A stretch of 64,000 nucleotides of DNA, taken from NCBI RefSeq assembly GCF_006007965.1, contig NZ_CP040748.1, positions 1,860,001-1,924,000 on the forward strand. Reading direction: 5' to 3'. Positions 501 to 45,558 of the stretch are shown one piece after another. The stretch is from Nocardioides jishulii. Lineage in GTDB: Bacteria; Actinomycetota; Actinomycetes; Propionibacteriales; Nocardioidaceae. The notes under the pieces are model-generated. The model did not search any database, was not told the origin of the DNA, and worked only from the letters and a program-made list of their open reading frames with translations. The position numbers and the translations under genes were made by a program. How positions within the stretch are numbered: position 1 is the first letter of the stretch; each line of letters opens with the position of its first letter.

Positions 501-817
501 GAGCGTCCCACGCCCTCGTCGAGCACGACCTCGACGAACTCACGCGGGTAGGAGTCGTAGGGGCGAAGGTGCTCGTACATCACGACGGTGTGCTCGACGT
601 AACCGTCGGCGCGCGTGCACTCCTCGTAGCTCTCGACGCTGTCGAACCAGCGGAGGTGGGTGAAGTGGGTCGGGTCCTCGACGCCCCGGAGCAGCTGCCG
701 CCCGCGGAAACCCGGGTGGTCCCGGAAGAATCGGCCGAACTCCTCGTTGAGGGCGATGTACGCCCGGGCGTGCTCCTCGCCGGGCTTGGTCCACGCCTGA
801 GAGATGACGGTGATCAC
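497..817 (-). CDS. ABM-domain (antibiotic biosynthesis monooxygenase / IsdG-like) protein
   Basis: A 106-residue dimeric alpha-beta-barrel type protein. It opens with MITVISQAWTKPG and carries the block WFDSVESYEECTRADGYVEH at 57-76, which matches the ABM pattern (W..[DE]S.E.YE....D.[FY]..H). His76 falls where the axial haem ligand of IsdG/IsdI sits by my hand alignment. ABM proteins include quinone-forming monooxygenases and the haem-degrading IsdG/MhuD group. It is the first gene of a leftward pair and diverges from the RCCR-like gene at 863, with the AT-rich regulatory element between them. The fold is fairly clear; a tetrapyrrole substrate is inference from context. Confidence 0.75.
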   Translation of the reverse strand: MITVISQAWTKPGEEHARAYIALNEEFGRFFRDHPGFRGRQLLRGVEDPTHFTHLRWFDSVESYEECTRADGYVEHTVVMYEHLRPYDSYPREFVEVVLDEGVGRS

Positions 818-833
818 ATGTTCTCCCTTCCGC

Positions 834-852
834 GTAGATCATATATCGCTAC
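834..852. promoter_or_regulatory. Recurrent AT-rich operator/promoter element, copy 1 (divergent promoter)
   Basis: GTAGATCATATATCGCTAC lies between the leftward ABM pair and the rightward RCCR-like gene. Its complement contains ATATATGATCTACG, nearly identical to the copy at 10507-10520. A -10-like TACACT at 850-855 is exactly 7 nt before the GTG at 863, so the RCCR-like transcript is probably leaderless. Confidence 0.55.
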
Positions 853-862
853 ACTTTGTACC

Positions 863-16906: not shown

Positions 16907-17643
16907 GCCGGCAACTCGTTGCTGACCAGGTGGTTGCGCAGGCGCTCGGAGGTCTCCTCGCCGAGGAGGCGCGTCATCTGGGCCCAGACCTTGTCGACCT
17001 CGGGCGAGAAGAGCAGGGCGCGGTTCTTCGCGTCACGCGCGACCAGGTCGGTGTCGGCGAGGTCAGCGACGACCTCGGCCGGCACCTCGCTGTTGACCAG
17101 GCTCAGCCAGTGGTCCAGGTAGGCGTTGACGGGGCCGTCGAGCTGGGCGAAGGCCTCCTCGGTGGCGCGGTTGGCGACCATCCACGAGGACATGACCGTG
17201 AGCTGACGGGGCTCGAGGACTGCCTTGGAGAGGCCCTCGAGGGTCGAGAGCTGCTCGAACGCCTCGGTGATCGGGGTGTGGCTCCAGTCGTTGGTCACCA
17301 TGTGGGTGCCCGCGTCGTGGCGCTGGATCAGGTCGAGGTGGAAGGCCATGTGTCCACCGGCAGCGACGGAGTCGAGGGTGTAGTGCGGCACCGGCGAGTC
17401 CTCCGGCATGAAGGCGAAGACCATGTGGGAGTCGAGGCCGATCTGGGGCACGGCGACGCCGACGTAGACGATCTTGGCGACCTTGTCACCGGTGAAGATG
17501 CGCACCGAGCCGACCGGGTCGGGGCCCATGACGGAGGTGAGGGTCTCGAACGGGCCGCCGTCGGCCCCCGTGATCTCGGTCGACCCGGTCTTGGCGACGA
17601 TCTTGTCGAGGGTGGAGATGCAGAGGTTCTCGGGCAGGCTCAC
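16903..17643 (-). CDS. Bilin-reductase-fold (FDBR/RCCR-like) protein 2, divergent
   Basis: A 246-residue protein. The centre reads VPHYTLDSVAAGGHMAFHLD (85-104), the pattern of the ferredoxin-dependent bilin reductase superfamily (PH-x-xxD strand, loop, H-x-x-xDL strand). The C-terminus ends RNRALLFSPEVDKVWAQ... LLGEETSERL, like the F(G/L)GEE..R..L tail of the two other family members here. It lacks the WLGPHIDVPH block of those two, so it may act on a different intermediate. I chose GTG 17643 because AAGGA lies 6 nt upstream. It is the first gene of the five-gene block down to 13676, separated from the Rieske gene by two hairpins. Confidence 0.65.
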   Translation of the reverse strand: MSLPENLCISTLDKIVAKTGSTEITGADGGPFETLTSVMGPDPVGSVRIFTGDKVAKIVYVGVAVPQIGLDSHMVFAFMPEDSPVPHYTLDSVAAGGHMAFHLDLIQRHDAGTHMVTNDWSHTPITEAFEQLSTLEGLSKAVLEPRQLTVMSSWMVANRATEEAFAQLDGPVNAYLDHWLSLVNSEVPAEVVADLADTDLVARDAKNRALLFSPEVDKVWAQMTRLLGEETSERLRNHLVSNELPA

Positions 17644-17678
17644 GAACGTTCCTTCGGTGTGTGGTGATGGGGTGAAGC

Positions 17679-17703
17679 AGGCCGGACACCCGGTGTCCGG
17701 CCT
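17679..17703. terminator. Inverted repeat upstream of the FDBR-like gene
   Basis: AGGCCGGACACC and its complement around a single C form a 12-bp-arm inverted repeat in the 157-bp gap between the Rieske gene and the next gene. It may act as a terminator or attenuator with the hairpin at 17759. Confidence 0.5.
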
Positions 17704-17758
17704 GGCGGAGCTCAGGGAGCAGAGGTCGCGGAGCGCGTGGCTCACGCGGGTGGTGCAC

Positions 17759-17800: not shown

Positions 17801-19012
17801 TCACTTGCTTGCTGCGGCAGCCTCGGCGTCGAGCTCCTCGCGCTCGGCCGTGGTCATGTCGGGGTGCGCGCGACCCTCCAGGATCTGGCGGCTGCGCACC
17901 TCCTTGAAGTTCCACGCGCTGGCGAGCTCGGGGACCAGCTTGCGCGCCGGCGACGGGATGACACGCGCCTCGACGCGGGCCGGGCCCTCGCCGACGATCG
18001 TGTTGCCCTCGACGCTCCAGCCCATGTCGATGAGCTCCTGGCGACGACGGCGGTACAGCGTCGCGTTGTAGTCGCTCTTGACGTGCAGCTCGGCCGACAG
18101 GTCGAACGGAAGGAGCTCCGGACGGACCGCGTCAACGATGGCCTGGTCCTCGTAGAGCACCTTGAAGACACGACGCTTGGCGTCACTGTCGGCCCAGGCG
18201 CCCTTGAAGAAGCCACGCAACGCGACGAACTTGACCAGCGTGGTCTCCTCGTCGATCGGCACGTTGACGTCGAAGATCTTCATCGGACCCATGGGGGTGT
18301 CGATCTCGAGCAGGATCATGTTCGGCAGCCACCAGGTGTTGGACACCTTGACCGGCGGACGGTTGGCCAGGTCCTGCTTGTTGGGGTTGATGAGACCCCA
18401 CAGGCCCTTGGACTTCGGCGGGTGCAGCTCGACGGAGATCTTGCAGCTCCACTCGGTCTCCTCGACGGCGTAGTCGGGGACCTCGGGCTTCTCCCGGTTG
18501 CCGAAGACGCCACCGTGGACGAACGGGGTGTGGGCGACGTCGACGCCGTTCTCCAGGATGCGCTCGTAGTTGGACTTCCAGAGGAAGGAACCACGCACGG
18601 CACGGAAGTTGACGGTGTCCTCGATCAGCGACCAGTCGGGGATCGGCGGACGCTCCTCCTCGGGAAGGTCACCCATGAAGACCCAGACGAATCCGTACTT
18701 CTCGAGCGTCGGGTAGGAGTCGACGCGCGCCTTGCGCGGAATGCCCTTGTCAGGGTGGGCAGGGATCTTGCTGACAGCACCGTCGGGCTCGTACTCCCAG
18801 CCGTGGTACGGGCAGACGACGCAGTCGCCCTTGAGCTCACCGTCGGACAGCGCGGCACCACGGTGGACGCAGAGGTCCGACATGGCGACGACCGAGTTGT
18901 CACTGCCCTTGCGGTACAGCACCAACTGCTGACCGAGCAGCTTGACCTTCATGGGCTTGCCGGCAACGACGTCATCGGCAAACTCGACGGCGTACCAGAA
19001 GTTCTTGAACAT
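17801..19012 (-). CDS. Rieske non-haem iron oxygenase, pheophorbide a oxygenase (PaO)-like
   Basis: A 403-residue oxygenase alpha subunit. The Rieske cluster ligands are C48-x-H50 and C67-x2-H70 (DLCVHRG...CPYHGWEY). The mononuclear iron site is D158-x2-H161-x4-H166 (NGVDVAHTPFVH). Around it, IPRKARVDSYPTLEKYGFVWVFMG resembles the PaO/Tic55 block. It lacks the C-terminal membrane helices and CxxC motif of plant PaO, so it would be a soluble relative. PaO opens the pheophorbide macrocycle, and RCCR acts on the product. Here the RCCR-like gene and a chlorophyllase-like gene are immediately upstream. No ferredoxin or reductase partner is encoded in the window. The Rieske class is certain; the PaO-like reaction is hypothesis. 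Confidence 0.85.
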   Translation of the reverse strand: MFKNFWYAVEFADDVVAGKPMKVKLLGQQLVLYRKGSDNSVVAMSDLCVHRGAALSDGELKGDCVVCPYHGWEYEPDGAVSKIPAHPDKGIPRKARVDSYPTLEKYGFVWVFMGDLPEEERPPIPDWSLIEDTVNFRAVRGSFLWKSNYERILENGVDVAHTPFVHGGVFGNREKPEVPDYAVEETEWSCKISVELHPPKSKGLWGLINPNKQDLANRPPVKVSNTWWLPNMILLEIDTPMGPMKIFDVNVPIDEETTLVKFVALRGFFKGAWADSDAKRRVFKVLYEDQAIVDAVRPELLPFDLSAELHVKSDYNATLYRRRRQELIDMGWSVEGNTIVGEGPARVEARVIPSPARKLVPELASAWNFKEVRSRQILEGRAHPDMTTAEREELDAEAAAASK

Positions 19013-19022
19013 GGCTGTCCTC

Positions 19023-20018
19023 CTAGCGTCGCCGCAGGTCGGCGAAGTGGGTGGGGGGGTTGCTGAAATGATGGTCCAGTTGAGCCTGTTGTGCAGGCAC
19101 CTTCTGAAGGTGGGTCCCGAAGAATGCCTCCAGGAGCGTGGTGAACGCCTCCCGCAGGGCCTCCTGGTCGGCTTCCAGGGGAGCCTCGAGGAATCCGCGC
19201 GCAGAGGTGGGGTCCTCCGGCGAGACGGGAAGCAGGTGCCCGGCGCCGTCGAGGACGGCGAGGCTCGCCTCACTGCTGTGTGGCAGGCCTTCGGCCCACG
19301 TACGTACGACGGGGTCGTGCTCCTCGGCACCGGCTTCCGCGCCGTAGCGGATCGCGCTGGCGGCGACCACCCCGTCGGCGTTGCCCGCGGTGATCATCAC
19401 CGGCACGCAGGCCGGCGAGGTGAGCAGGGTGCCGGCCTCGAAGCCCAGCATCTGCGAGGCCATGAGGTGGGACCCGAAGGTCGCGACGGCGGCGATCTCG
19501 GGGAACCACTGCGGGTCGGCCGACTGCAGTGCGACCGTGCCACCGGCGGAGTGTCCGAGCAGACCGACCCGGTCGAGGTCGAGCATGCCAGCGAGCGGCC
19601 CCTCGGCGTGCAGCGCGGCGAGCCGGTCCAGGATCGGGCGCAGCGCTGGCGTCGTGGGGGCGGTCCCGTAGCCCTGGGGGCTGGCCACGGCGACGTCCAC
19701 TCCCGGCGTCAGTCCGTTCTGTCCGGGGAAGAGCTGGCCCACCCAGTCGTAGGAGACGACCACGTGGCCGGCCTCGACGAGTCGGGTCGCCAGCCACGTG
19801 TAGCCGGCAGAGGCCACGTTGACCCCGGGCACCACGACGATGACCGGGTAGGGCGCACCGTCGGTGTCAGGAGCGAGCGCACCGCTCATCCGCTCCACGT
19901 CGTTGCGCGCCGGCCAGGCCGGGTGACGCACCGTCAGGTGGACCGTGTCGAGGGGGGCAGGCGCGCCGTCCACGCGCACCGCATCGCGGTACGCGCGAAC
20001 GACGACCTGGGTGCTCAT
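19023..20018 (-). CDS. Alpha/beta hydrolase resembling chlorophyllase
   Basis: A 331-residue soluble hydrolase. YPVIVVVPGVNVASAGYTWLATRLVEAGHVVVSYDW (57-92 region) resembles the chlorophyllase/PAF-acetylhydrolase layout, with the nucleophile motif GHSAGG at 155-160 (Ser157), a likely acid in ITAGNADGVV and a His in LDGAGHLLPV. Chlorophyllase removes phytol from chlorophyll; related enzymes cut other bulky esters. It lies between the RCCR-like gene (5 bp) and the Rieske gene (10 bp) in one transcript. I am confident of the fold and catalytic Ser, less so of the chlorophyllase-like subclass. Confidence 0.75.
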   Translation of the reverse strand: MSTQVVVRAYRDAVRVDGAPAPLDTVHLTVRHPAWPARNDVERMSGALAPDTDGAPYPVIVVVPGVNVASAGYTWLATRLVEAGHVVVSYDWVGQLFPGQNGLTPGVDVAVASPQGYGTAPTTPALRPILDRLAALHAEGPLAGMLDLDRVGLLGHSAGGTVALQSADPQWFPEIAAVATFGSHLMASQMLGFEAGTLLTSPACVPVMITAGNADGVVAASAIRYGAEAGAEEHDPVVRTWAEGLPHSSEASLAVLDGAGHLLPVSPEDPTSARGFLEAPLEADQEALREAFTTLLEAFFGTHLQKVPAQQAQLDHHFSNPPTHFADLRRR

Positions 20019-20023: not shown

Positions 20024-20842
20024 TCAGCGGTCCAGCGGTCGCGGGAGGACGCGGTCGCCACCCCAGAGGGCGCGCACGAGCTGCTCGGTGCGCTCCTCGC
20101 CGAAGTAGCGCACGGCGACGACGTTGGCCGGGTCGAGCTCGGCGATGTTGCGGCGGGTGCTGAGGTCGGCCTCGGCGAGCTCGGCCTGCTTCTCGGCAGG
20201 GACCTCGGTCGCCTCGGCGACCCACTGGAGCCAACGGTCCATGTGGTCGTTGGCCGTCTTGCGAGCCAGGTCGTAGAACTCCTGCGACGGCTCGGCCATG
20301 AACGACCACGCGGTGGGCGAGTAGGTCGCGCGCACGAAGGCGTCGCGCGAGACGAACTCGTCGATGCCGGGGGTGTTCTTGTGGATCTGCTGCCACTCGT
20401 CGTTGAACGGGGCGTAGTACTTGTTGAAGTACTCCACGTCGGTCGAGATGACCTTGCGCGGCACGGAGTCCATGAACATCCAGGCCTGCGGGAAGGCGCC
20501 GAGCGCCATGCCGAAGTGGGGGACGTCGATGTGCGGGCCGAGCCAGATGGTCAGGTGCACATTGACGAAGCCGAGCGACTTGTTCTGCATGTGCGAGTGG
20601 ATCATCCAGTCCACGTTCTCGCCCGTGTAGGCGCGGATCTGACCCGTGGGGCCACCGTCAGCCTCCGAGGCGAAGGCCTCGAGCTCGTCGGTCGACGGGT
20701 CACGCTGCAGGTCACCCAGGGCGGCCATGGCCTTGGCCTTGAGCCCCTCGATGATGTCCAGCCACTCCGCGAAGGTCGCGGAGACGTCGGTGACGGGGGC
20801 ATCGTCCAGGAAGTCCTGGACGAACTTCATGTTCTCACTCAT
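20024..20842 (-). CDS. Red chlorophyll catabolite reductase (RCCR)-like protein 3
   Basis: A 272-residue paralogue of the protein at 863, of the same length. It shares the block WLGPHIDVPHF (100-110), then MDSVPRKVISTDVEYFNKYY (RCCR-type PHRKDL..DYLeeYY), FVRATYSPTA (plant FVRSAFSPTA) and a C-terminal RYFGEERTEQLVRAL. The last two blocks are closer to plant RCCR than those of the 863 protein. It is the first gene of the trio with the chlorophyllase-like and PaO-like genes, behind the AT-rich element at 20883. The ATG 20842 start has a GAGG ribosome site. It probably reduces a linear tetrapyrrole with ferredoxin; the substrate is not proven. Confidence 0.78.
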   Translation of the reverse strand: MSENMKFVQDFLDDAPVTDVSATFAEWLDIIEGLKAKAMAALGDLQRDPSTDELEAFASEADGGPTGQIRAYTGENVDWMIHSHMQNKSLGFVNVHLTIWLGPHIDVPHFGMALGAFPQAWMFMDSVPRKVISTDVEYFNKYYAPFNDEWQQIHKNTPGIDEFVSRDAFVRATYSPTAWSFMAEPSQEFYDLARKTANDHMDRWLQWVAEATEVPAEKQAELAEADLSTRRNIAELDPANVVAVRYFGEERTEQLVRALWGGDRVLPRPLDR

Positions 20843-31447: not shown

Positions 31448-32026
31448 TCAGTCGAGGAAGCGTACGAGAGCGCGTCCCTCGCCCTGCGGCACGGGCTCCC
31501 CCGCCGGCACGACGGCGTAGGCCTGCGACTCGAACCAGACGACCTCGACGTCCTGGTCCAGGACGGCACCGGCGACGTCGTCGCGCAGCTCGATCCGACC
31601 GTGGAGCCCTTCGGCCGGCTCACGGACGAATCCGGGAGCGAGGTCGATCAGCGTGCTGGTGCCCGAGACGAGGTCCTCCCCGTCCACCCAGCCGCCTGCG
31701 GCCCCGGTGAACCAGACCACGGCACGGGTGCCGTCGAGCGTCGAGGTGTCCGCACGAAGGGCGCGCGGGGTGATGACGAGGAGCTGCCCCGGCCGGGCCG
31801 TCACACCGCTGACGGTGAGGGCACCCGTCAGGGTGACCATCTCCTCGCCCGCGGGCTGGGTGCCGACGGCGTCACGGCGCCAGCCGTCGGGGAAGGCGAC
31901 GAGCACGGTGCGTACGCCGCGGGCCTCGTCGGAGTGGAGCATGCTCATCCGGGCCTTGAGGTCAGCACCGGCGATCGCGGCCTCGAACCACGCGAGGTCG
32001 GTCGAGGTGAGGTCGATCAGGGTCAT
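31448..32026 (-). CDS. Cupin-like protein B (paralogue of neighbour)
   Basis: A 192-residue protein of the same length as its neighbour, sharing DLTS, VRTVLVAFPDGW, GTQPAGEEMV, ALTVSG, VITPRALRA and the C-terminal ALVRFLD. It arose by tandem duplication. The ATG start overlaps the amidase stop (ATGA), so it is tightly coupled to it. No recognised catalytic His cluster is seen. A role as isomerase, hydrolase or binding partner for the neighbouring amidase product is open. Confidence 0.7.
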   Translation of the reverse strand: MTLIDLTSTDLAWFEAAIAGADLKARMSMLHSDEARGVRTVLVAFPDGWRRDAVGTQPAGEEMVTLTGALTVSGVTARPGQLLVITPRALRADTSTLDGTRAVVWFTGAAGGWVDGEDLVSGTSTLIDLAPGFVREPAEGLHGRIELRDDVAGAVLDQDVEVVWFESQAYAVVPAGEPVPQGEGRALVRFLD

Positions 32027-32676
32027 CGGTTCTCCTTCTGCGCCGCGAGTGCCTCGAAGCGACTGAGCACCTCGGCCTCGCTGACCACGTCTGCGTACTT
32101 GGCGTTGAGGTCGAAGAGGTTCTGGTCGTGCGTGGCCTCCTCGCGGTCGCCACTGGCGTCGGCGATCACCTGCGGGCGGAAGCCGTGCTGGAGGGCGTCG
32201 AGGGCGGTGGCGCGGACGCACCCGCTGGTGGAGAACCCGAAGACGTACGGGGTGTCGATGCCCAGGGCACGCAGCGTGGAGGCCAGCGAGGTGCCGAAGA
32301 AGCCGGAGGCGTACTGCTTGGCCACCACGATCTCGCCGGGCAGCGGCGCCGGGCCGTCGACGGGGAACTCCCCGAGCGGGTTGCCCACCTCGAAGACCTT
32401 CAGCGAGGGCACCTTCTTCGCGAACCAACCGGCGTCGGCGAGCCCGGGCTGCAGGACGACCTGGGTGAAGAGCACCGGTACGCCCGCCTCCCGCGCCGCG
32501 TCGACCACGCGGGACGCACTGGCACGGGCGGCCTCGAAGCGACCGCTGGTGTCGGAGAGCGGGGACTCGGGGTCGAGGTAGGCGCGGCAGACGTCGATCA
32601 CCAGCAGCGCCGGGGAGTCCCCGGCGCCGAGGTGCCCCTGGAATCCGGCGGCGGCGCTGTCCTGGGTGCGGTCCAT
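32023..32676 (-). CDS. Cysteine hydrolase of the isochorismatase family, maleamate/N-carbamoylsarcosine amidase-like
   Basis: A 217-residue amidase. Catalytic residues are Asp28 (LLVIDVCRAY), Lys120 (IVVAKQYASGFFGT) and Cys153 (FSTSGCVRATALDAL). The TSGCVRATALDALQHGFRP block is characteristic of N-carbamoylsarcosine amidase and maleamate amidase (NicF) in this family, so half-amide cleavage to a dicarboxylate and ammonia is the likely chemistry. It lies between a CoA-transferase and the two cupins. It could act after the imidase-like enzyme at 44092. The reaction type is well supported; the exact substrate is not. Confidence 0.85.
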   Translation of the reverse strand: MDRTQDSAAAGFQGHLGAGDSPALLVIDVCRAYLDPESPLSDTSGRFEAARASASRVVDAAREAGVPVLFTQVVLQPGLADAGWFAKKVPSLKVFEVGNPLGEFPVDGPAPLPGEIVVAKQYASGFFGTSLASTLRALGIDTPYVFGFSTSGCVRATALDALQHGFRPQVIADASGDREEATHDQNLFDLNAKYADVVSEAEVLSRFEALAAQKENR

Positions 32677-32678
32677 CG

Positions 32679-33887
32679 TCAGATGATCCCGCGCTCGGCC
32701 AGGCCGGCCCTCTCCTCGGCGCTCAGGCCGAGGAGGTCGCCGTAGACGTCGTCGTTGTGCGCACCCATCTCCGGGCCGGTCCACCGGATCGAGCCGGGGG
32801 TGGCGGAGAGCTTGGGCACGACGTTCTGCATCCGCAGCTGGCCGAAGTTGGCGTCGGGGACCTGGACGATCGACTCGCGCGCCTGGAAGTGCGGGTCCTC
32901 GAGCATGTCGGCCGCCTTGTAGATCCGACCTGCGGGGATGCCGCCCTCATCCATGAGGCGGAGCAGCTCCTCGGCGTCGACCGTCTTCGTCCACTCCGAG
33001 ATGAGGTCGTCGAGCTCGGTCTGCGCCTGGCCGCGGCCGACGTGGGTGGAGTACTGGTGTCCGGGCTCCGACCACTCAGGCTTGCCCATGATCGCGAAGA
33101 GGCGCGAGGAGACCGAGTCCTGGTTGGCGGCGATCAGGATCAGCTGGTCGTCCTTCGTCGGGTAGACGTTGGAGGGCGCCACGTTGGGCAGGATCGCCCC
33201 GGTGCGCTCACGCTGGTAGCCGGCGATGTCCCACTCGGTGACGAGCGACTCCATCATCGCGAGCACGGACTCGTAGATCGAGGCGTCGACGACCTGGCCC
33301 TCACCGGTGACGGAACGACGCTGCAGCGCCGACAGCGCACCCACGGTCGCGTGCATGGCGGCCAGCGAGTCACCGATCGAGATGCCGGCGCGCGACGGCT
33401 GACGGTCCGGGTCGCCGAGCACGTAGCGCAGGCCGCCCATGGCCTCACCGATCGAGCCGTAGCCCGCACGGTTGGAGTAGGGGCCGGTCTGGCCGTAGCC
33501 GGTCACCCGCACCAGGATGATCCCGGGGTTGACCTCCTTGAGCCGCTCGTAGGAGAGGTTCCACTTCTCGAAGGTCCCGGCACGGAAGTTCTCGACGATG
33601 ATGTCGGCCTCGGCCACGAGCTTGAGGAAGAGCTCCTGCCCCTCCTCCTCGCGGAGGTTGAGCGTGACGGCACGCTTGTTGCGGCCCACCACGGGCCACC
33701 ACAGCGACTTGCCGTCGGTGCGGCCCCACTGACGCATCGGGTCGCCCATGCCGGGCGCCTCGACCTTGATCACGTCGGCGCCCTGGTCCGCCATCAGGGT
33801 CGCGGCGAACGGCCCGGCGAGCAGCTGACCCGCCTCGAGAACGCGAACTCCGGCCAACGGCCCTGCCACAGGAGAGGAAGTCGTCAT
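32679..33887 (-). CDS. CaiB/BaiF (family III) CoA-transferase 1
   Basis: A 402-residue type III CoA-transferase: VRVLEAGQLLAGPFAATLMADQGADVIKVE, then ENFRAGTFEKW, a GYGQTGPYSNRAGYG block and VDASIYESVLAMM. The catalytic Asp is in the FRAG...-linked region typical of the family. The ATG 33887 start sits only 3 nt from the palindromic element at 33890, with a TATGAT -10 ending 7 nt upstream, so the transcript is probably leaderless. It diverges from the HMG-CoA-lyase-like gene. It probably loads a dicarboxylate onto CoA before cleavage by that enzyme. Confidence 0.9.
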   Translation of the reverse strand: MTTSSPVAGPLAGVRVLEAGQLLAGPFAATLMADQGADVIKVEAPGMGDPMRQWGRTDGKSLWWPVVGRNKRAVTLNLREEEGQELFLKLVAEADIIVENFRAGTFEKWNLSYERLKEVNPGIILVRVTGYGQTGPYSNRAGYGSIGEAMGGLRYVLGDPDRQPSRAGISIGDSLAAMHATVGALSALQRRSVTGEGQVVDASIYESVLAMMESLVTEWDIAGYQRERTGAILPNVAPSNVYPTKDDQLILIAANQDSVSSRLFAIMGKPEWSEPGHQYSTHVGRGQAQTELDDLISEWTKTVDAEELLRLMDEGGIPAGRIYKAADMLEDPHFQARESIVQVPDANFGQLRMQNVVPKLSATPGSIRWTGPEMGAHNDDVYGDLLGLSAEERAGLAERGII

Positions 33888-33889
33888 GC

Positions 33890-33908
33890 ATCGGATCATA
33901 TATCCGAT
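33890..33908. promoter_or_regulatory. Best palindromic copy of the recurrent element (copy 7)
   Basis: ATCGGATCATATATCCGAT is a perfect 7-bp inverted repeat (ATCGGAT/ATCCGAT) around CATAT, in the divergent gap between the CoA-transferase (33887) and HMGL-like (33953) genes. It is the best operator candidate for a dimeric GntR regulator and covers the CoA-transferase -10 box. Confidence 0.65.
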
Positions 33909-33952
33909 ATCATCGGCTCGCACACGTTGGCGTCACACCCGGACGGAGTCCC

Positions 33953-34888
33953 ATGACTGGCGAAGAGATCCCTGCCTCGACGATCCCCGTGGTGGAGATC
34001 GTAGAGGTTGCCCCGCGCGACGGGCTGCAGAACGAGAAGAAGGTCCTGCCCACCGAGATCAAGGCCGAGCTCGTACGCCGCAGCCTGGACGCCGGACTGC
34101 GTCGCATCGAGGTCACCGCCTTCGCGCGGCCCGACCGCGTGCCGCAGATGGCCGACGCCGAGGCGCTCCTGTCCGAGGTCACCTCCGACCCGCGGCTGAC
34201 CTCGATCGGCCTGGTGCTCAACCGCAAGGGCCTCGACCGCGCCGTCGCTGCGGGCTGCGACGAGATCACCGCCGTCGTGGTGGCCTCCGACGGCCTGGCC
34301 CTGCGCAACCAGGGCGCTGACACGAAGGCCCAGATCGAGGCGTGGCACACCATCGCCGCCGACGCCCGGGAGGCGGGGATCAAGGCCAGCGTCATCATCG
34401 CTGCCGCCTTCGGTTGCCCGTTCGACGGGGAGGTCTCCACCGAGCGGGTGCTCGAGGTCGCCAAGGGCGTCCTGGACGCCGGCCCGGACGAGCTCGCCAT
34501 CGCCGACACGATCGGCGTGGGCGTGCCCGCCCAGGTGCGGGCCATCGTCGGCGGCATCCGCCAGCTCGACGCCGACATCCAGCTGCGTGCCCACTTCCAC
34601 AACACCCGCAACACGGGCTACGCCAACGCACTGGCCGCGGTGGAGTCGGGCGTCACCGTGCTCGACGCCTCGACGGGCGGGATCGGCGGATGTCCCTTCG
34701 CCCCCGGCGCGACGGGCAACATCGGCACCGAGGACCTCCTCTACCTGCTCGATCGCTCGGGCGTCCGCACCAGCACCGCGATCGACGCGTCGCAGGTCGC
34801 CGCGACCGGCACCTGGATCAGCGACCAGCTCGGCCTCCCCCAGGCGCCGGCCATGCTCGGCCGCGCTGGCTGGTTCCCGGCGCCCTGA
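33953..34888 (+). CDS. mvaB: Hydroxymethylglutaryl-CoA lyase-like enzyme
   Basis: A 311-residue HMGL-family lyase. The active-site strand is VAPRDGLQNE (Arg22, Asp23), the metal motif is LRAHFHNTRNTG (HxH), and the glycine/cysteine loop is GIGGCPFAPGATGN, all intact. The family cleaves 3-hydroxy-3-methylglutaryl-CoA or related branched hydroxyacyl-CoA to acetyl-CoA plus an acid. Divergent from a CoA-transferase over the palindrome at 33890, it most likely cleaves a CoA-activated branched fragment made in this pathway. The symbol is by family only. Confidence 0.85.
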   Translation: MTGEEIPASTIPVVEIVEVAPRDGLQNEKKVLPTEIKAELVRRSLDAGLRRIEVTAFARPDRVPQMADAEALLSEVTSDPRLTSIGLVLNRKGLDRAVAAGCDEITAVVVASDGLALRNQGADTKAQIEAWHTIAADAREAGIKASVIIAAAFGCPFDGEVSTERVLEVAKGVLDAGPDELAIADTIGVGVPAQVRAIVGGIRQLDADIQLRAHFHNTRNTGYANALAAVESGVTVLDASTGGIGGCPFAPGATGNIGTEDLLYLLDRSGVRTSTAIDASQVAATGTWISDQLGLPQAPAMLGRAGWFPAP

Positions 34889-38927: not shown

Positions 38928-40328
38928 TCAGGCCGCGCCGCCCAGGCGGGTGCCGAGCAGGCGACCGAAGGTCAGCGCAGGGGTCACCAGCATGCCGGAG
39001 CAGAAGGTGTTGCCACAGGTCGCGCCGGCGCCGATGACCTCGCCGATGGCGTACAGGCCCTCGATCGGCTCACCCGACTCGTCACGCACCCGGAAGTCCG
39101 CGTCGATGTCGAGGCCGGTGAAGGTGACCAGGGTGATCGCGTGGTTGCGGATCGCGTAGAACGGACCCTGGGCGATGGGAGCAGGCAGGTACGTCCGCCC
39201 GAACTGCGGGTCGCTGCCGTCGGCCACCGCGGCGTTGTAGGCCTCGACCTGGGCGACCAGGCCGGCCTCGTCGATACCGGCCTTGCGTGCCAGCTCCTCG
39301 AGCGTCGCGGCGGAGTGGACGCCCGGACGCGTGTCGGCCACGGCGCGCACCTCGTCGGGCTCCTTGCCCACGATCATCTGGTTGAGGTCGCCGGTGGAGA
39401 GCTCAAGGGCGGCGTCGTCGAAGACCGTCCAGAACGTCTGGTCCGCGATCGTGGCGAGCGCGCGCTCCTTCTCGTCGATCGACTCCTCGTCCTCGGCGAC
39501 CCAGCGCTGGCCGAACTTGTCGACGTAGATCTCCCGCGGCGGACGCTCGGAGGTCAGGCGCTGCCGGTCGTTCCAGTTCGCACGGCCGGGGGTCTGCGGG
39601 TCGGGCAGGCCACCGAAGGTCGGCAGGTAGGTGCCCTCGCCCTGGAGACCGGCGCCGATCGACTGGCCGAGCAGGATGCCGTCGCCCGTGCTGGTCCTCG
39701 CCGTGGCGGAGACCAAGGGTGCGCCGTCGAACTCCATGAAGAGCTCGGGCTCGGCGCCGTAGCCGCCGGTCGACAGCACCACGGTGCCGTGCACCTCGAC
39801 CTCGGCCCCGCCGTGGTAGACGCCGACGCCGATGACCCGGCCCTCATCGTCAGTGAGCAGCTCGGTGACCGGGGAGGAGGTCCAGACCTCGAGGTCGTGC
39901 TCGGCGACGCAGGCGTCGAGCTCCTTCTGAAGCACCTCGAGGATCGACAGCCCCTCGTCCTTGCCGTAGTGGGTGCGCGCCGTCTCGTAGGGCTCGTGGC
40001 CGTAGATGATCCGAGGGCTCTCGGGCGCGAACGGGAAGTCGCGGTCGGTGAGCCACTCAAGGGTCTCGGGGGCGTTGCGGGCCACGATCTCGACCAGGTC
40101 GTCTCGGGCGGTGCCCTTGGTGATCCGGTGGATGTCGGCCAGGTGCATCTCAGGGTTGTCGACGATGCCCCGCTCGGCCTGTCGGCGGGTACCGCCGGCC
40201 GCCATGTGCCCTCCGGTGATGTGCAGGGTACCGCCGATCTTGGCGTCCTTCTCCACGAGCAGGACACGTGCACCGCCCTGGGCGGCGTGGATGGCACAGG
40301 GGATCCCGGCCGTGCCGGCTCCCACCAC
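38928..40328 (-). CDS. FAD-dependent oxidoreductase (fumarate reductase/succinate dehydrogenase flavoprotein family)
   Basis: A flavoprotein of at least 466 residues. N-terminal FAD motif VGAGTAGIPCAIHAAQGG, then GGTLHITGGHMAAGG and a TFTGLDID/GLYAIGEVIGAGATCGN C-terminal FAD block, as in soluble fumarate reductases and KstD-like enzymes. The annotated GTG at 40328 would begin inside the first beta strand. Ten codons upstream is an in-frame ATC (40356-40358) preceded by AGAAGG at 7 nt, giving the natural N-terminus (M)TEPHVVDVVVVGAG. There is no ATG/GTG/TTG in that frame. It may reduce an enoate or maleimide-type double bond. It diverges from the CoA-transferase at 40520. Confidence 0.85.
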   Translation of the reverse strand: MVGAGTAGIPCAIHAAQGGARVLLVEKDAKIGGTLHITGGHMAAGGTRRQAERGIVDNPEMHLADIHRITKGTARDDLVEIVARNAPETLEWLTDRDFPFAPESPRIIYGHEPYETARTHYGKDEGLSILEVLQKELDACVAEHDLEVWTSSPVTELLTDDEGRVIGVGVYHGGAEVEVHGTVVLSTGGYGAEPELFMEFDGAPLVSATARTSTGDGILLGQSIGAGLQGEGTYLPTFGGLPDPQTPGRANWNDRQRLTSERPPREIYVDKFGQRWVAEDEESIDEKERALATIADQTFWTVFDDAALELSTGDLNQMIVGKEPDEVRAVADTRPGVHSAATLEELARKAGIDEAGLVAQVEAYNAAVADGSDPQFGRTYLPAPIAQGPFYAIRNHAITLVTFTGLDIDADFRVRDESGEPIEGLYAIGEVIGAGATCGNTFCSGMLVTPALTFGRLLGTRLGGAA

Positions 40329-40519: not shown

Positions 40520-41716
40520 GTGACTTCTGGGCCCCTCGCCGGTATCCGCGTCATCGACGCGTCCACGATCCTCGCTGGCCCCCTGGCCTGCCAGATCCTG
40601 GGCGACTACGGCGCCGACGTCGTCAAGATCGAGCACCCCACCAAGCCCGACGGCATGCGTGGCCACGGCCCCGCCGTCGACGGCACCCCGATCTGGTGGA
40701 AGGAGGTCGCGCGCAACAAGCAGACGATCGGCCTCAGCCTCTCGGTCCCCGAAGGTGCCGAGCTCTTCCTCCGACTCGCGGCCACGGCCGACGTGGTGGT
40801 CGAGAACTTCCGCCCCGGCACCCTCGAGAAGTGGGGCGTGGGCCCGGAGCAGCTGCACGCCGTCAACCCCGGCCTCGTCATCGTGCGGATCACCGGATTC
40901 GGGCAGACCGGCCCCTACGCCTCGCGCGCCGGCTTCGGCACGCTGGCCGAGTCGATGAGCGGCTTCGCGCACCTCACCGGCCAGCCCGACGGCCCTCCGA
41001 CCCTGCCCGCCTTCGGGCTCGCGGACTCGATCTGCGGCATCGCCGCCTCCTCCGCGGTCTCGATGGCCCTGCTGGCCCGCGAGAAGAACGGCGGTCAGGG
41101 CCAGGTCATCGACATGGACCTGCTCTCCCCGATCATGACCGCCGTCGGCCCCGGCCCGACCGTCTACCAGCAGACGGGCGTGGTCGGCATGCGCCACGGC
41201 AACCGTTCGACCAACAACGCGCCGCGCAACACGTACCAGACCTCTGACGGCCACTGGGTCGCGATCTCCACGAGCGCCCAGGCGATCGCGGAGCGCGTGA
41301 TGGTCCTCGTCGGCCACCCCGAGGTGATCGAGGAGCCCTGGTTCGCGGCCGGCAACACCCGCGCCCAGCACACCGACGAGCTCGACGAGATGGTCGGCTC
41401 GTGGATCGGCGCCCGTACGCGCGACGAGGTCGTCGACGCGTTCACCGAGGCCGGTGCGGCGATCGCCCCGATCTACTCCGCCAAGGAGATCGTCGAGGAC
41501 CCGCACATCCGCGAGACGCAGATGCTCACCGAGGTCGACGACGCCGACTTCGGTCCGCTGCTCCAGCACAACGTGATGTGGCGGATGTCGGAGACCCCCG
41601 GCTCGATCCGCTTCACCGGTCGCAAGCACGGCGAGGACACCGACGAGGTCCTCACCGGACTCGGGCTCGACGCCGAGAAGCTGGCCGACCTGCGCGAGCG
41701 CAACGTCATTCGTTGA
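40520..41716 (+). CDS. CaiB/BaiF (family III) CoA-transferase 2
   Basis: A 398-residue type III CoA-transferase. IRVIDASTILAGPLACQILGDYGADVVKIE and ENFRPGTLEKW...NPGLVIVRITGFGQTGPYA are typical; the catalytic Asp is in QVIDMDLLSPIM. I chose GTG 40520 with AAAGGAG 6-7 nt upstream. It is first in a four-gene rightward operon with cyclase, MmgE/PrpD and imidase-like genes (spacings 49, -4 and -4 bp). It is distant from CoA-transferase 1 at 32679. It probably activates the product of the ring-opening steps. Confidence 0.9.
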   Translation: MTSGPLAGIRVIDASTILAGPLACQILGDYGADVVKIEHPTKPDGMRGHGPAVDGTPIWWKEVARNKQTIGLSLSVPEGAELFLRLAATADVVVENFRPGTLEKWGVGPEQLHAVNPGLVIVRITGFGQTGPYASRAGFGTLAESMSGFAHLTGQPDGPPTLPAFGLADSICGIAASSAVSMALLAREKNGGQGQVIDMDLLSPIMTAVGPGPTVYQQTGVVGMRHGNRSTNNAPRNTYQTSDGHWVAISTSAQAIAERVMVLVGHPEVIEEPWFAAGNTRAQHTDELDEMVGSWIGARTRDEVVDAFTEAGAAIAPIYSAKEIVEDPHIRETQMLTEVDDADFGPLLQHNVMWRMSETPGSIRFTGRKHGEDTDEVLTGLGLDAEKLADLRERNVIR

Positions 41717-41765
41717 GCCAGCCGCCCCTGCACCCCTGACCAGAACCACGGAAGAACGAGGACCG

Positions 41766-42605
41766 ATGACCACCTCCGTCACGACCCAGCTGCTGGACGC
41801 CGCTGCCCAGGGCCTGGAGATCTTCGACCTGGGCCGCACGCTCACCGTCGGCATGCCCCAGTCGCCCAACCACCCGGCGTACTGGCACGCGATGCCGCGT
41901 CGCCACGGTGACATGACCCGCGGCGACGGCGGCTCGGCCGCCAACGACATGATCTCGATGGGCACCCACGTCGGCACCCACGTCGACGCCCTCGCGCACG
42001 TCTCCCAGGACGGCAAGCTCTACGGCGACGTCGACGCCTACGACGCGCAGGTCGGCGGCAAGTTCGTCGAGCACGGCGCGCACACCATCGAGCCGATGGT
42101 CCGCCGCGGCGTCCTGCTCGACGTGCCCGGCACCCTGGGTGTCGGTCGCCTCGAGCCCGGCCAGGAGATCACGGTCGACGACCTGAAGGCGACCCTGGAG
42201 AAGCAGGGCACCGAGATCCGCGAGGGCGACGTCGTCCTGGTGCGCTCCGGCTGGGGCCAGCACTTCGACAACGGCGACGGTGACACCTACCGCGGTCTGT
42301 CCACCGGCGTGCCCGGTGTCTCCGACTCCGGCGCCACCTTCCTGGCCGACTTCGGCATCCACGCCACCGGCGCCGACACGATCGCCTACGAGCAGCTCAA
42401 GCCCGGCGCCGGCCACGGCCTGCTGCCGGCGCACCGCGTGCTCCTGGTCGAGCGTGGCATCTACATCATCGAGGCGATGGACCTGGAGAAGCTGGCAGCG
42501 GGTCTGGCCGGCTCCTCCTACGAGTTCCTCTTCGTGATGAGCCCGCTGAAGTTCTTCGGCGCCACCGGCTCGCCCGTGCGCCCGCTGGCGGTGGTCGGCG
42601 CGTGA
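41766..42605 (+). CDS. Cyclase-family (kynurenine formamidase-like) metallohydrolase
   Basis: A 279-residue protein with the family motif HVGTHVDALAH (68-78; His68, His72, Asp74, His78 as metal ligands) and a second half containing GDVVLVRSGWG. Members include kynurenine formamidase and enzymes that open lactams or cyclic amides. It is the second gene of the operon and its stop overlaps the MmgE/PrpD start by 4 bp. Together with the imidase-like enzyme at 44092 it could open nitrogen-containing rings derived from pyrroles. Confidence 0.85.
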   Translation: MTTSVTTQLLDAAAQGLEIFDLGRTLTVGMPQSPNHPAYWHAMPRRHGDMTRGDGGSAANDMISMGTHVGTHVDALAHVSQDGKLYGDVDAYDAQVGGKFVEHGAHTIEPMVRRGVLLDVPGTLGVGRLEPGQEITVDDLKATLEKQGTEIREGDVVLVRSGWGQHFDNGDGDTYRGLSTGVPGVSDSGATFLADFGIHATGADTIAYEQLKPGAGHGLLPAHRVLLVERGIYIIEAMDLEKLAAGLAGSSYEFLFVMSPLKFFGATGSPVRPLAVVGA

Positions 42606-44095
42606 CGACCTACTCCCCCGCCCCCGACGCGCGTCCCGAGGGCAACCCGACGTACGCCCCCGACGGCGGCCCGACGCTGGCCCAGCAGATCGGCGCCTTC
42701 GCCGAGCACTGCGCCACCCACGGGATCCCCCCCGAGGTCACGGCCTCGGTCGGCCAGCGCACCCTCGACATCCTGGGTCTCTGCGTCGCCGCCCACCGCC
42801 TGCCCACCAGCGCCGCGGCGATCGACCACGTCCTCGACCAGGGTGGCCACCCGCAGGCGACCATCGTCGGCGTCCCGACGAAGGTCAACGCCGCACAGGC
42901 CGCCTTCGCCAACGGCGTGCTCGCCCACTCCCTCGACTACGACGACACCCACCTGCCGTCGGTCCTGCACCCCAGCGCGTCCGTGGTCCCGGCCGCCCTG
43001 GCGGCTGCGGAGCACGCCGGCGCCTCCGGTGAGCTGACCAGCCGGGCGATCGCCGTCGGCATCGAGGTCGCGGTCCGCCTCGGCATGGCCGGCTACGACG
43101 CCGAGCTCGGCAACTCCGTCTTCTTCGAGCACGGCCAGCACGCCACCTCCATCACCGGCGCGATGGGCTCCTCGGTCGCCGCCGCGATGATCTACGGCCT
43201 CGACGCCAAGGGCATCGCCGACGTCCTGGGGATCACCGCCTCCATGGCCGCCGGCGTCATCGAGGCCAACCGCACCGGTGGCACGGTCAAGCGCCTCCAC
43301 TGCGGCGTCGCGGCCCAGGCCGGCGTCACCGCCGCCCAGCTGGTCAAGCGCGGCTTCACCGGCCCGCCGACCGTCCTGGAGGGCCGCTTCGGCTTCTTCC
43401 AGGGATGGTTGCACGGCCAGTTCTTCCCCACCGCGATCACCGAGGGCCTCGGCCAGGAGTGGTCGGTGCCGGGCATCTTCTTCAAGCCCTACCCGGCCAA
43501 CCACTTCACCCACACCACCGTCGACGCCGGCATCGCCTTCCGTGAGCAGGGCATCACGCCCGAGATGGTCGAGTCGGTCGTCGTGGGTGTGGCCGGTTCG
43601 ACCGTGCGCACCATCGGTGAGCCGATCGAGGTCAAGCGCACCCCCGACACCGGGTACCAGGCGCAGTTCTCCGGACCGTACGCCTTCGCTGCCGGCCTGA
43701 TCGGCGGCGGCGGCCTCGCGACCGGACTGGACGACTACAGCGACGAGCTCGCCCAGGACCCGGCGCGTCGGGCCCTCATGGCGAAGGTCGACGTCGTCGC
43801 CGACGAGAAGTGCAACGACATCTTCCCGTTCCAGTTCCCGGCGGTCGTCACGCTGCGTACGACCGACGGACGTGAGCTGGTCCAGGAGGTGCTCACCAAC
43901 CGCGGCGGGCCCGCCCGTCCGCTGAGCGACGCCGAGCTCAGCCGCAAGTTCGCGGACAACGTGGCCGGTCGCGTGGCCGACGACGTCGCAGCCGCCGTGA
44001 GCACCCAGGTGCTCGCCCTCCAGGACGCCACCGACCTTCCCGGTGTCCTGGCCCCCCTCTCCACCTTCATCACCGACACCGAGGAGTCCAAGTGA
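42602..44095 (+). CDS. MmgE/PrpD family protein (2-methylcitrate dehydratase-like)
   Basis: A 497-residue all-alpha/lid-domain protein: VGQRTLDILGLCVAAHRLPT near the N-terminus, ANGVLAHSLDYDDTHLPSVLHPSASVVPAAL (the family core), and GGTVKRLHCGVAAQAGVTAA. The family covers 2-methylcitrate dehydratase and several epimerases/dehydratases of branched dicarboxylates. It overlaps both neighbours by 4 bp. In this operon it could hydrate or dehydrate a substituted malate or maleate after imide opening. The family call is firm; the substrate is inference. Confidence 0.88.
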   Translation: MTTYSPAPDARPEGNPTYAPDGGPTLAQQIGAFAEHCATHGIPPEVTASVGQRTLDILGLCVAAHRLPTSAAAIDHVLDQGGHPQATIVGVPTKVNAAQAAFANGVLAHSLDYDDTHLPSVLHPSASVVPAALAAAEHAGASGELTSRAIAVGIEVAVRLGMAGYDAELGNSVFFEHGQHATSITGAMGSSVAAAMIYGLDAKGIADVLGITASMAAGVIEANRTGGTVKRLHCGVAAQAGVTAAQLVKRGFTGPPTVLEGRFGFFQGWLHGQFFPTAITEGLGQEWSVPGIFFKPYPANHFTHTTVDAGIAFREQGITPEMVESVVVGVAGSTVRTIGEPIEVKRTPDTGYQAQFSGPYAFAAGLIGGGGLATGLDDYSDELAQDPARRALMAKVDVVADEKCNDIFPFQFPAVVTLRTTDGRELVQEVLTNRGGPARPLSDAELSRKFADNVAGRVADDVAAAVSTQVLALQDATDLPGVLAPLSTFITDTEESK

Positions 44096-45558
44096 GCGAG
44101 CTCGACCTCATCATCACCAACGTCCAGGCCGTCCTGCCTGGCCAGGCCGAGCCGCAGAGCGTCGACCTCGGCATCAAGGACGGCAAGTTCGCCCGCATCG
44201 AGGCCAACCTGGACCCGGCACTGGCCGACGCCGTCGTCGACGGTGGCGGCAAGACCGCCTTCCCGGGCGTCGTCGACGCCCACCAGCACTGGGGCATCTA
44301 CAACCCGCTGCCCACCGACGTCCGCACCGAGTCGCGCGCCTCGGCGCAGGGCGGTGTGACCACGTCGCTCTCCTACATGCGTTCGGGCCAGTACTACCTC
44401 AACAAGTCGGGCGACTACGCCGAGTTCTTCCCCGAGGTGCTGGACCTGACCGCCGGCAACGCCGCGATCGACTACACCTACCACCTCGCGCCGATGAGCA
44501 AGTCGCAGATCGCCGAGATCCCGGCCCTGGTCAAGGACCACGGCGTGACCTCGTTCAAGGTCTTCATGTTCTACGGCTCCTACGGCCTGCACGGCCGCAG
44601 CGAGGACCAGTCGAAGTTCCTCATGACGCCCGAGGGTGAGCGCTACGACTACGCGCACTTCGAGTTCGTGATGCGTGGCGTGCAGAAGGCCCGCGAGGAG
44701 AACCCCGAGATCGCCGACCAGATCTCGCTCTCCCTGCACTGCGAGACCGCCGAGATCATGGCTGCCTACACCAAGATGGTCGAGGAGGACGGCACCCTGA
44801 CGGGCCTGCCCGCCTACTCCGCGTCGCGTCCCCCGCACTCGGAGGGCCTGGCCGTCACGATCGCCTCCTACCTGGCGCACGAGACCAACCTGCCGACGAT
44901 CAACCTGCTGCACCTCACCTCCCGCAAGGCCGTCGAGGCTGCGCTGACGATGGCTGCCGCCTTCCCGCACATCGACTTCCGTCGTGAGGTCACCGTGGGC
45001 CACCTGCTGGCCGACTGCGACACCGCCCACGGTGTCGGCGGCAAGGTCAACCCGCCGCTGCGTCCGCGCGAGGACGTCGAGGCGCTGTGGGGCTACCTGC
45101 TCGACGGCAAGATCGACTGGGTCGTCTCCGACCACGCCTGCTGCAAGGAGGAGCTCAAGTTCGGCGAGCCCAAGGACGACGTCTTCGTCGCCAAGTCGGG
45201 CTTCGGCGGCGCCGAGTACCTGCTCGCCGGCATGGTCTCCGAGGGTCGCAAGCGCGGCCTCTCGCTGGGCCGCATCGCCGAGCTCACCGCCCAGAACCCG
45301 GCCGAGCGCTACGGCCTGGGCAAGACCAAGGGCTCCATCGCCGTGGGCAAGGACGCCGACGTCGCGCTCGTCGACCTGGCGACCGACTGGACCGTCCGCG
45401 CCGAGGAGTCGGTCTCCTCGCAGGAGTACACCCCGTTCGAGGGCGCCGAGCTGACCGCCAAGGTCACCGACACCTTCCTGCGCGGCACGCAGATCATGAT
45501 CGACGGCGTCGTCACCGACGAGACCAACGGCCGCTACCTGGCCCGTCCCACCGCCTGA
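44092..45558 (+). CDS. Amidohydrolase, hydantoinase/dihydropyrimidinase/imidase-like
   Basis: A 488-residue urease-superfamily amidohydrolase. All ligands are present: HxH at H64/H66 (VDAHQHWG), the carboxylated Lys156 (SFKVFMFYGS), His in LHCET and LHLTS, and Asp in WVVSDHACC. This cyclic-amide hydrolase group includes dihydropyrimidinase, hydantoinase, allantoinase and imidases that open succinimide or maleimide. It is last in the operon with the CoA-transferase, cyclase and MmgE/PrpD. Maleimides are classical products of pyrrole oxidation, so an imide substrate would fit the island. The ring-opening class is well supported. Confidence 0.85.
   Translation: MSELDLIITNVQAVLPGQAEPQSVDLGIKDGKFARIEANLDPALADAVVDGGGKTAFPGVVDAHQHWGIYNPLPTDVRTESRASAQGGVTTSLSYMRSGQYYLNKSGDYAEFFPEVLDLTAGNAAIDYTYHLAPMSKSQIAEIPALVKDHGVTSFKVFMFYGSYGLHGRSEDQSKFLMTPEGERYDYAHFEFVMRGVQKAREENPEIADQISLSLHCETAEIMAAYTKMVEEDGTLTGLPAYSASRPPHSEGLAVTIASYLAHETNLPTINLLHLTSRKAVEAALTMAAAFPHIDFRREVTVGHLLADCDTAHGVGGKVNPPLRPREDVEALWGYLLDGKIDWVVSDHACCKEELKFGEPKDDVFVAKSGFGGAEYLLAGMVSEGRKRGLSLGRIAELTAQNPAERYGLGKTKGSIAVGKDADVALVDLATDWTVRAEESVSSQEYTPFEGAELTAKVTDTFLRGTQIMIDGVVTDETNGRYLARPTA

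What the first reader, a model, noticed from the sequence alone, without database searches (positions are those of the whole stretch)
40520..45558. Four-gene ring-opening and CoA operon, with the half-amidase encoded elsewhere in the island
CoA-transferase, cyclase-family hydrolase, MmgE/PrpD and imidase-like amidohydrolase are translationally coupled. With the maleamate-amidase-like enzyme (32023) and HMGL-like lyase (33953) they outline: imide or lactam opening, half-amide cleavage, hydration of a substituted maleate, CoA activation and carbon-carbon cleavage. Oxidative breakdown of pyrroles gives maleimides such as hematinic acid, which fits. A similar logic is known for dimethylmaleate in nicotinate fermentation.
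Basis: inference. Interest (0 to 1): 0.7.

Follow-up and report, generated by a model that had tools for sequence, protein, structure and literature searches.

The report
Portable ring-opening CoA gene cassette
A soil bacterium carries a four-gene set, found all over the actinobacteria, that probably opens a small nitrogen ring and breaks it down through CoA; in Nocardioides and Mumia one version travels almost exclusively with a gene island that looks built to digest chlorophyll- or heme-like pigments.

Summary
The four genes exist as described. The last three overlap by 4 nt; CaiB is 49 nt upstream. They form a conserved actinobacterial cassette (CaiB CoA-transferase, cyclase-family hydrolase, MmgE/PrpD, dihydropyrimidinase-type amidohydrolase) with at least 582 relatives of its amidohydrolase. 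Outside the island it travels with a CitE/RipC-type C-C lyase in 53 of 59 loci, with HMGL in none and with the 32023-type amidase in one. The amidase at 32023 and HMGL at 33953 belong, with a second CaiB, to a different, parallel module. That module is core to a ~50 kb island of red-chlorophyll-catabolite-reductase relatives and a Rieske oxygenase, conserved in several actinobacterial families. The cassette's own lyase lies 257 kb away. The link to the island is real in this lineage: the Nocardioides/Mumia cassette clade is RCC-reductase-positive in 19 of 20 genomes, against 3 of 46 other cassette genomes. The CoA/C-C-cleavage logic is supported. Imide chemistry is plausible but unproven: the amidohydrolase is equally close to allantoinases and hydantoinases. 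A hematinic-acid or maleimide substrate remains inference.

The parts
40520..41716 (+). CaiB1, class III CoA-transferase; first gene of the cassette
   Evidence: PF02515 383 bits; start GTG 40520 behind AAAGGAGA; first in cassette order in the family loci
41766..42605 (+). cyclase-family (PF04199) metal hydrolase; proposed half-amidase of the cassette
   Evidence: PF04199 105 bits; GTHVGTHVDALAH motif, invariant H68 H72 D74 H78; nearest solved 5ibz, then isatin hydrolases and kynurenine formamidase
42602..44095 (+). MmgE/PrpD protein; proposed hydratase of a substituted 1,4-dicarboxylate
   Evidence: PF03972+PF19305; 4-nt overlap with the cyclase; H123 aligns with IDS-epimerase His99, invariant F175 in place of its second base Tyr145
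44092..45558 (+). dihydropyrimidinase/allantoinase-type amidohydrolase; proposed ring-opening enzyme
   Evidence: metal ligands H64 H66 K156 H216 H274 D347 invariant in 18 relatives; model Z 37.8 to allantoinase 3e74, 36.6 to D-hydantoinase 1k1d
38928..40328 (-). FAD_binding_2 flavoprotein, divergent from the cassette; accessory (ene-reductase or dehydrogenase)
   Evidence: PF00890; FAD2-type proteins lie near 25/59 non-island cassettes
32023..32682 (-). isochorismatase-fold amidase: module 1 of the island, NOT a regular partner of the cassette
   Evidence: Asp-Lys-Cys residues; N-carbamoylsarcosine amidohydrolase and 3ot4/3uao relatives; in nearly all islands fetched, near 1/59 non-island cassettes
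32679..33923 (-). CaiB2, second CoA-transferase: module 1 of the island
   Evidence: PF02515; 39% identical to CaiB1; island core
33953..34888 (+). HMG-CoA-lyase-type lyase: module 1 of the island
   Evidence: NF004283 275 bits over cut-off 246; PRDG, HxH and GGC motifs in 22/22 island members; 0/59 non-island cassettes
359..1681 (+). RCC-reductase-family protein 1 (true start downstream of 359)
   Evidence: PF06405 52.9 bits, over gathering 24.9
20024..20842 (-). RCC-reductase-family protein 2
   Evidence: PF06405 48 bits; profile hits Arabidopsis RCCR 3aga E 2.4e-17 and bilin reductase 6qwq E 8e-9
17801..19330 (-). Rieske oxygenase, VanA_C type; island core
   Evidence: PF00355, PF19112; conserved in the islands
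16903..17745 (-). third RCC-reductase/bilin-reductase superfamily protein
   Evidence: hhalign against RCCR2 profile: probability 97.7, E 1.6e-12
15920..16906 (-). double-barrel lipocalin-like protein, island core
   Evidence: model pLDDT 81; Z 18.7 to DUF3598 2o62 and BFA1 5yvf, about 12-13 to nitrobindin, 10-11 to phycobiliprotein lyases

Best explanation
The operon is a portable actinobacterial catabolic cassette. The amidohydrolase (44092) opens a cyclic imide-like ring, and the cyclase-family hydrolase (41766) frees the second nitrogen bond, giving a substituted maleate-type 1,4-dicarboxylate. MmgE/PrpD (42602) hydrates it, CaiB1 (40520) activates it with CoA, and a CitE/RipC-type lyase (in this genome outside the window, at G000:C1:1647439) splits it into pyruvate plus an acyl-CoA. 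In Nocardioides/Mumia one clade of this cassette has become a fixed companion of an RCC-reductase/Rieske island that itself carries a parallel module (amidase 32023, CaiB2 32679, HMG-type lyase 33953). The likeliest reason is that an open-chain tetrapyrrole is cut into two kinds of ring fragment (propionate-bearing and vinyl/ethyl-bearing maleimides or lactams), each with its own CoA and lyase branch. SHOWN by sequence: gene unit, family assignments, catalytic residues, lyase partnership, association with the island. INFERRED: substrate, order of steps, hydration by MmgE, the products (pyruvate + glutaryl-CoA from hematinic acid; pyruvate + butyryl- or crotonyl-CoA from the alkyl maleimides), and which module takes which fragment.
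For: Cassette order invariant in the family loci; 67 loci with all four genes, and 53/59 non-island ones also have a CitE-type lyase against 0 HMGL and 1 IsoCh. The CitE orthologue is in many island stretches and in this genome (347 bits; grouped at 99* with island CitEs). Window-clade cassettes are RCC-reductase-positive in 19/20 genomes against 3/46 others (Fisher 2e-12, relatedness ignored). All 19 RCC-reductase genomes among 245 relatives hold a cassette, 16 of them near the island. A cassette of another clade sits by the island in G245 and G575. All metal ligands and motifs are present. MmgE/PrpD enzymes of known function all act on 1,4-dicarboxylates (PMC12290011), and this one lacks the epimerase Tyr. 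Island proteins match RCC reductase, bilin reductase and a lipocalin-like fold.
Against: Most cassette genomes have no RCC reductase, so the cassette's ancestral substrate is not a tetrapyrrole product. One island genome (G299) has no close cassette amidohydrolase and G485 only a 44% relative. Sequence and fold cannot tell imidase from hydantoinase or allantoinase. No heme or chlorophyll substrate has been tested for any protein of the island. The lyase in this genome is 257 kb from the operon and sits among other acyl-CoA genes.
Confidence: 0.5

Rival explanations
1. Ureide route: 44092 is a hydantoinase or dihydropyrimidinase. The ring is a hydantoin or pyrimidine, and the product is an N-carbamoyl acid finished by a carbamoylase (in the island perhaps the nitrilase-type protein at 27554).
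For: Nearest solved structures are D-hydantoinases and allantoinases; Asp/Glu/hydantoin-racemase-superfamily genes lie near some cassettes; the island has a CN-hydrolase.
Against: No DHPase, allantoinase or hydantoinase equivalog cut-off is met. A CN-hydrolase lies near only 1/59 non-island cassettes, and the recurrent M20 partner matches dipeptidases, not carbamoylases. CoA transfer plus C-C lyase has no role in known ureide pathways.
Confidence: 0.2
2. The cassette handles some other N-heterocycle of soils (a lactam from a pyridine, pyrazine or indole type) and its link with the RCC-reductase island is ecological or inherited, not biochemical.
For: At least 582 relatives, most tested genomes without RCC reductase; some contexts carry molybdenum hydroxylase, OYE or varied ABC transporters.
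Against: Near one-to-one match of one cassette clade with the island (19/20) and a second cassette lineage beside the island in other families.
Confidence: 0.2
3. Reductive route: the flavoprotein (38928) reduces the ring double bond first, the imidase opens a substituted succinimide, and MmgE/PrpD is an epimerase of the 2-alkylsuccinate, as the methylsuccinate isomerase is in the itaconate cluster.
For: FAD_binding_2 proteins near 25/59 cassettes and an OYE in others; nearest solved relative of MmgE is IDS epimerase; MmgE/PrpD beside CoA-transferase and citramalyl-CoA lyase is a proven methylsuccinate isomerase in Cupriavidus and Pseudomonas (PMC12290011).
Against: The second catalytic base of both epimerases (Tyr145 in IDS epimerase) is an invariant Phe here; a CitE-type lyase needs a 3-hydroxyacyl-CoA, so a dehydrogenation and hydration would still be required.
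Confidence: 0.15

Closest known systems
Bacterial cyclic-imide degradation (imidase / half-amidase)
   Same: Cyclic amidohydrolase-fold ring opener plus a second amide hydrolase; imidase is listed among the cyclic amidohydrolases (PMC4437985, abstract)
   Different: Adds MmgE/PrpD, CoA-transferase and C-C lyase; imide activity not tested here
Itaconate / methylsuccinate cluster (itaconate CoA-transferase, hydratase, citramalyl-CoA lyase, MmgE/PrpD isomerase; PMC12290011)
   Same: CoA-transferase + CitE-type lyase + MmgE/PrpD, expected to end in pyruvate + acyl-CoA
   Different: Carries two ring/amide hydrolases; MmgE lacks the isomerase Tyr; the lyase scores 151 against a cut-off of 375 for RipC
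Nicotinate fermentation via dimethylmaleate (from general knowledge)
   Same: Ring opening, hydration of a disubstituted maleate, cleavage to pyruvate + acid
   Different: Hydratase there is aconitase-like and the lyase of the isocitrate-lyase superfamily, without CoA; here MmgE/PrpD, CoA-transferase and CitE
Aerobic nicotinate/nicotine end pathway (NicF maleamate amidase)
   Same: 32023 resembles 3ot4/3uao (112 bits) and would yield a maleate-type acid
   Different: 32023 belongs to the other module; no CoA chemistry in the Nic pathway
Plant PaO/phyllobilin pathway (Rieske oxygenase + RCC reductase)
   Same: The island has a Rieske oxygenase beside RCC-reductase-family proteins
   Different: Rieske is VanA_C type with no PaO-domain match; plants stop at phyllobilins, with no ring mineralisation module

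Membership tests
Cyclic amidohydrolases (DHPase/hydantoinase/allantoinase/imidase) | binuclear-metal ligands HxH, carbamylated Lys, His, His, Asp | tested here: met
   H64 H66 K156 H216 H274 D347 invariant in 18 relatives
Cyclic amidohydrolases (DHPase/hydantoinase/allantoinase/imidase) | overall fold | tested here: met
   Z 37.8 over 395 residues to 3e74; model pLDDT 74.7
Dihydropyrimidinase, allantoinase or hydantoinase proper | NCBIfam equivalog cut-off | tested here: not met
   best 215 vs 631 and 213 vs 358 (allantoinase), 169 vs 393 (dihydropyrimidinase)
Imidase | hydrolysis of cyclic imides | not testable with these tools
   needs an enzyme assay
Maleamate amidase (NicF) for 32023 | Asp-Lys-Cys triad and closest match to NicF | tested here: inconclusive
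   triad present; N-carbamoylsarcosine amidohydrolase scores higher (131 vs 112 bits)
MmgE/PrpD two-base isomerase/epimerase | second catalytic Tyr (Tyr145 in IDS epimerase) | tested here: not met
   Phe175 invariant at that place; alignment near a gap, no Tyr within 7 residues
2-methylcitrate dehydratase PrpD | NCBIfam equivalog cut-off | tested here: not met
   61 vs 950, 48 vs 575 and 43 vs 458 bits
Itaconate cluster lyase RipC/Ccl (cassette's CitE partner) | NF038242 cut-off 375 bits | tested here: not met
   151 bits; own-genome copy 181.8 bits
Dimethylmaleate pathway of nicotinate fermentation | aconitase-like hydratase in the operon | tested here: not met
   only hydratase candidate in the operon is MmgE/PrpD; the rest of the genome was not searched
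HMG-CoA lyase (33953) | NCBIfam subfamily cut-off and catalytic motifs | tested here: met
   275 vs 246 bits; PRDG/HxH/GGC motifs; substrate not tested
RCC reductase family (island) | PF06405 gathering score | tested here: met
   52.9 and 48.0 vs 24.9 bits; 3aga E 2.4e-17

The most novel reading that the evidence does not exclude
The island encodes a complete bacterial route that mineralises open-chain tetrapyrroles (chlorophyll or heme catabolites). The pyrrole rings are released as two kinds of maleimide or lactam, and each kind is dismantled by its own amide hydrolase, CoA-transferase and C-C lyase branch to pyruvate plus an acyl-CoA. The operon at 40520-45558 is one of these branches, recruited from a widespread imide-degrading cassette.
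Probability: 0.35. Interest if true: 0.88.

Novelty: new variant of a known kind. Interest (0 to 1): 0.62.

Why it matters
Chlorophyll and heme are degraded on a global scale, yet I found no described bacterial gene set for the fate of their pyrrole rings; the library searched holds only open-licence papers and returned none. The cassette is also widespread in Streptomyces, Rhodococcus, Nocardia, Micromonospora and Actinomadura, so assigning its substrate would annotate hundreds of genomes. The two-module structure gives concrete, cheap tests: two imide substrates and two predicted acyl-CoA products.

Tried and rejected
HMGL 33953 as the cassette's lyase: rejected as the general partner, because CitE is. 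32023 as the cassette's half-amidase: rejected as the general partner (1/59 loci). Deciding hydantoinase against imidase from the predicted structure: failed, allantoinases, hydantoinases and DHPases tie within about 2 Z units. Literature for a named pathway with this gene set: none found in open-licence papers; the riboflavin catabolism paper PMC12746152 was checked and uses different enzymes. Promoter/terminator scan uninformative in this high-GC genome. First imidase alignment A1 had three rows on the wrong strand and was replaced by A2. A second CitE-rich locus (L284) is a distant paralogue.

Full report
WHAT WAS CHECKED. The window is part of a 3.54 Mb single-contig actinobacterial genome; the closest named relatives with this operon are Nocardioides. 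The four reported genes are real, with high GC3 and full-length family matches. CaiB runs 40520-41716 with a Shine-Dalgarno-like AAAGGAGA before the GTG; cyclase 41766-42605; MmgE/PrpD 42602-44095; amidohydrolase 44092-45558. The last three overlap by 4 nt. CaiB and cyclase are 49 nt apart here, while a 4-nt overlap is the commonest state among relatives at all three junctions, nearly tied with an 8-nt overlap at cyclase-MmgE.

THE CASSETTE IS A UNIT. In 245 genomes of the family, 38 encode a strong homologue of the amidohydrolase; in the family loci fetched, every one that carries the amidohydrolase has the same four genes in the same order. A scan of 84,980 species found at least 582 relatives across Actinomycetota; of the best 80, 47 have all four genes within about 20 kb. 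Outside the island the regular fifth member is a CitE/HpcH-family lyase whose best named relative is the itaconate lyase RipC/Ccl: 53 of 59 non-island full cassettes have it, none has HMGL, one has the 32023-type amidase. The cassette therefore already contains a CoA and C-C-cleavage logic, and it manages amide hydrolysis with its own two hydrolases.

The amidase at 32023 and the HMG-type lyase at 33953 do not belong to the cassette. With a second CaiB (32679; 39% identical to the first) they form a second module. It is part of the core of a ~50 kb island: RCC-reductase-like proteins, Rieske oxygenase, Amdase-type protein, two aldehyde dehydrogenases, flavin monooxygenase pair, nitrilase. All 19 of 245 family genomes with RCC-reductase genes have this island in the same order (HMGL was not seen in the G057 stretch fetched). 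In G299 the island exists without any close cassette amidohydrolase, and in G485 with only a 44% relative. In this genome the cassette's lyase has an orthologue at G000:C1:1647439, outside the window; it groups at 99* with the CitE genes near other Nocardioides islands.

THE LINK TO THE ISLAND IS NONETHELESS REAL. In the amidohydrolase tree the Nocardioides/Mumia island cassettes form one clade (100*) of 20 distinct genomes; 19 of them have the RCC-reductase pair, against 3 of 46 genomes with other cassettes in the same search; of the two tested separately, L223 has an RCC reductase and L225 does not. Fisher tests give 2e-12 to 3e-24 but ignore relatedness (counts entered by hand). G158 and G057 pair the island with an unlinked cassette of another clade, and G245 and G575 have a third kind linked to theirs. 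So the cassette appears to have been paired with the island more than once.

IS THE ISLAND ABOUT TETRAPYRROLES? RCCR2 orthologues as a profile hit Arabidopsis RCC reductase (3aga, E 2.4e-17), a plastid bilin reductase (6qwq, E 8e-9) and phytochromobilin synthase. The protein at 16903 is a third member by profile comparison. The core protein at 15920, without any Pfam match, is predicted as a double barrel closest to DUF3598 and BFA1 (Z 18.7), with its C-terminal half like nitrobindin (Z about 12-13) and phycobiliprotein lyases (Z 10-11). These are families and folds known for tetrapyrroles, but a shared fold shows no function, and no substrate is proven.

CHEMISTRY. The amidohydrolase has all six metal ligands and the hydantoinase/allantoinase fold but reaches no equivalog cut-off, so imide, lactam and ureide remain open. 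Against a ureide, carbamoylase-type neighbours are nearly absent. The cyclase carries the HxGTHxDxxxH motif and is related to isatin hydrolase and kynurenine formamidase. The MmgE/PrpD protein aligns its H123 with IDS-epimerase His99 but has an invariant Phe where the epimerases have the second base Tyr (mechanism from PMC12290011), which favours hydration over epimerisation. My proposal (inference): a 2-methyl-3-R-maleate gains water at the methyl-bearing carbon, is activated with CoA at the other carboxylate, and is split to pyruvate plus R-CH2-CO-CoA. For hematinic acid that is glutaryl-CoA; for ethyl- or vinyl-methylmaleimide it is butyryl- or crotonyl-CoA. Two modules for two ring types would explain why the island strains keep both. 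Both CaiB proteins have succinate-glutarate CoA-transferase as their best NCBIfam match (267 and 248 bits), but far below its cut-off of 750, so this is only a hint.

VERDICT. Observation confirmed; interpretation partly supported and corrected. The gene unit, its lyase partner and its tie to the island are well supported; imide specificity and the tetrapyrrole-derived substrate are plausible and untested.

LIMITS. Genome samples are one per species and related to each other. The species scan returned only the 80 best loci. RCC-reductase absence rests on one Pfam profile and, for draft genomes such as N. gansuensis (L164), on incomplete assemblies. The literature held is open-licence only.

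Noticed in passing
window 359-34888: About 50 kb island of RCC-reductase-like genes, Rieske oxygenase, Amdase, aldehyde dehydrogenases, flavin monooxygenase, nitrilase, amidase, CaiB2, HMGL, conserved in order in the 19 RCC-reductase-positive genomes among 245 relatives and recurring in other actinobacterial families.
   Followed up: partly
window 15920-16906: Core island protein without Pfam match; predicted double-barrel lipocalin-like fold near DUF3598/BFA1, C-terminal half like nitrobindin and phycobiliprotein lyases.
   Followed up: partly
window 16903-17745: Third RCC-reductase/bilin-reductase superfamily protein that Pfam does not recognise.
   Followed up: partly
L270-L275 (genomes G250, G277, G325): Actinobacteria of one family with genomes of 1-1.7 Mb carry up to four RCC-reductase-family genes and split versions of the same island.
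   Followed up: partly
L225 (Nocardiopsis algeriensis): Cassette together with the 32023-type amidase, nitrilase and Amdase, but no RCC reductase anywhere in the genome: perhaps a strain that uses ready-made ring fragments.
   Followed up: no
window 13676-14926: Amdase/maleate-isomerase-family protein of the island core keeps CGTN for one Cys but has MSAET where I expect the other Cys of maleate isomerases (from memory), so decarboxylase or isomerase role is unclear.
   Followed up: no
L295 (G000:C1:1637500-1657400): The CitE orthologue sits in a cluster of acyl-CoA dehydrogenase, MaoC-like and thiolase-like genes with weak CaiB (29%) and MmgE (33%) matches, possibly a further related pathway.
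   Followed up: no
L236: A contig labelled Bifidobacterium breve (MAG) groups with Nanopelagicales and other uncultured actinobacterial contigs; the label is probably wrong.
   Followed up: no
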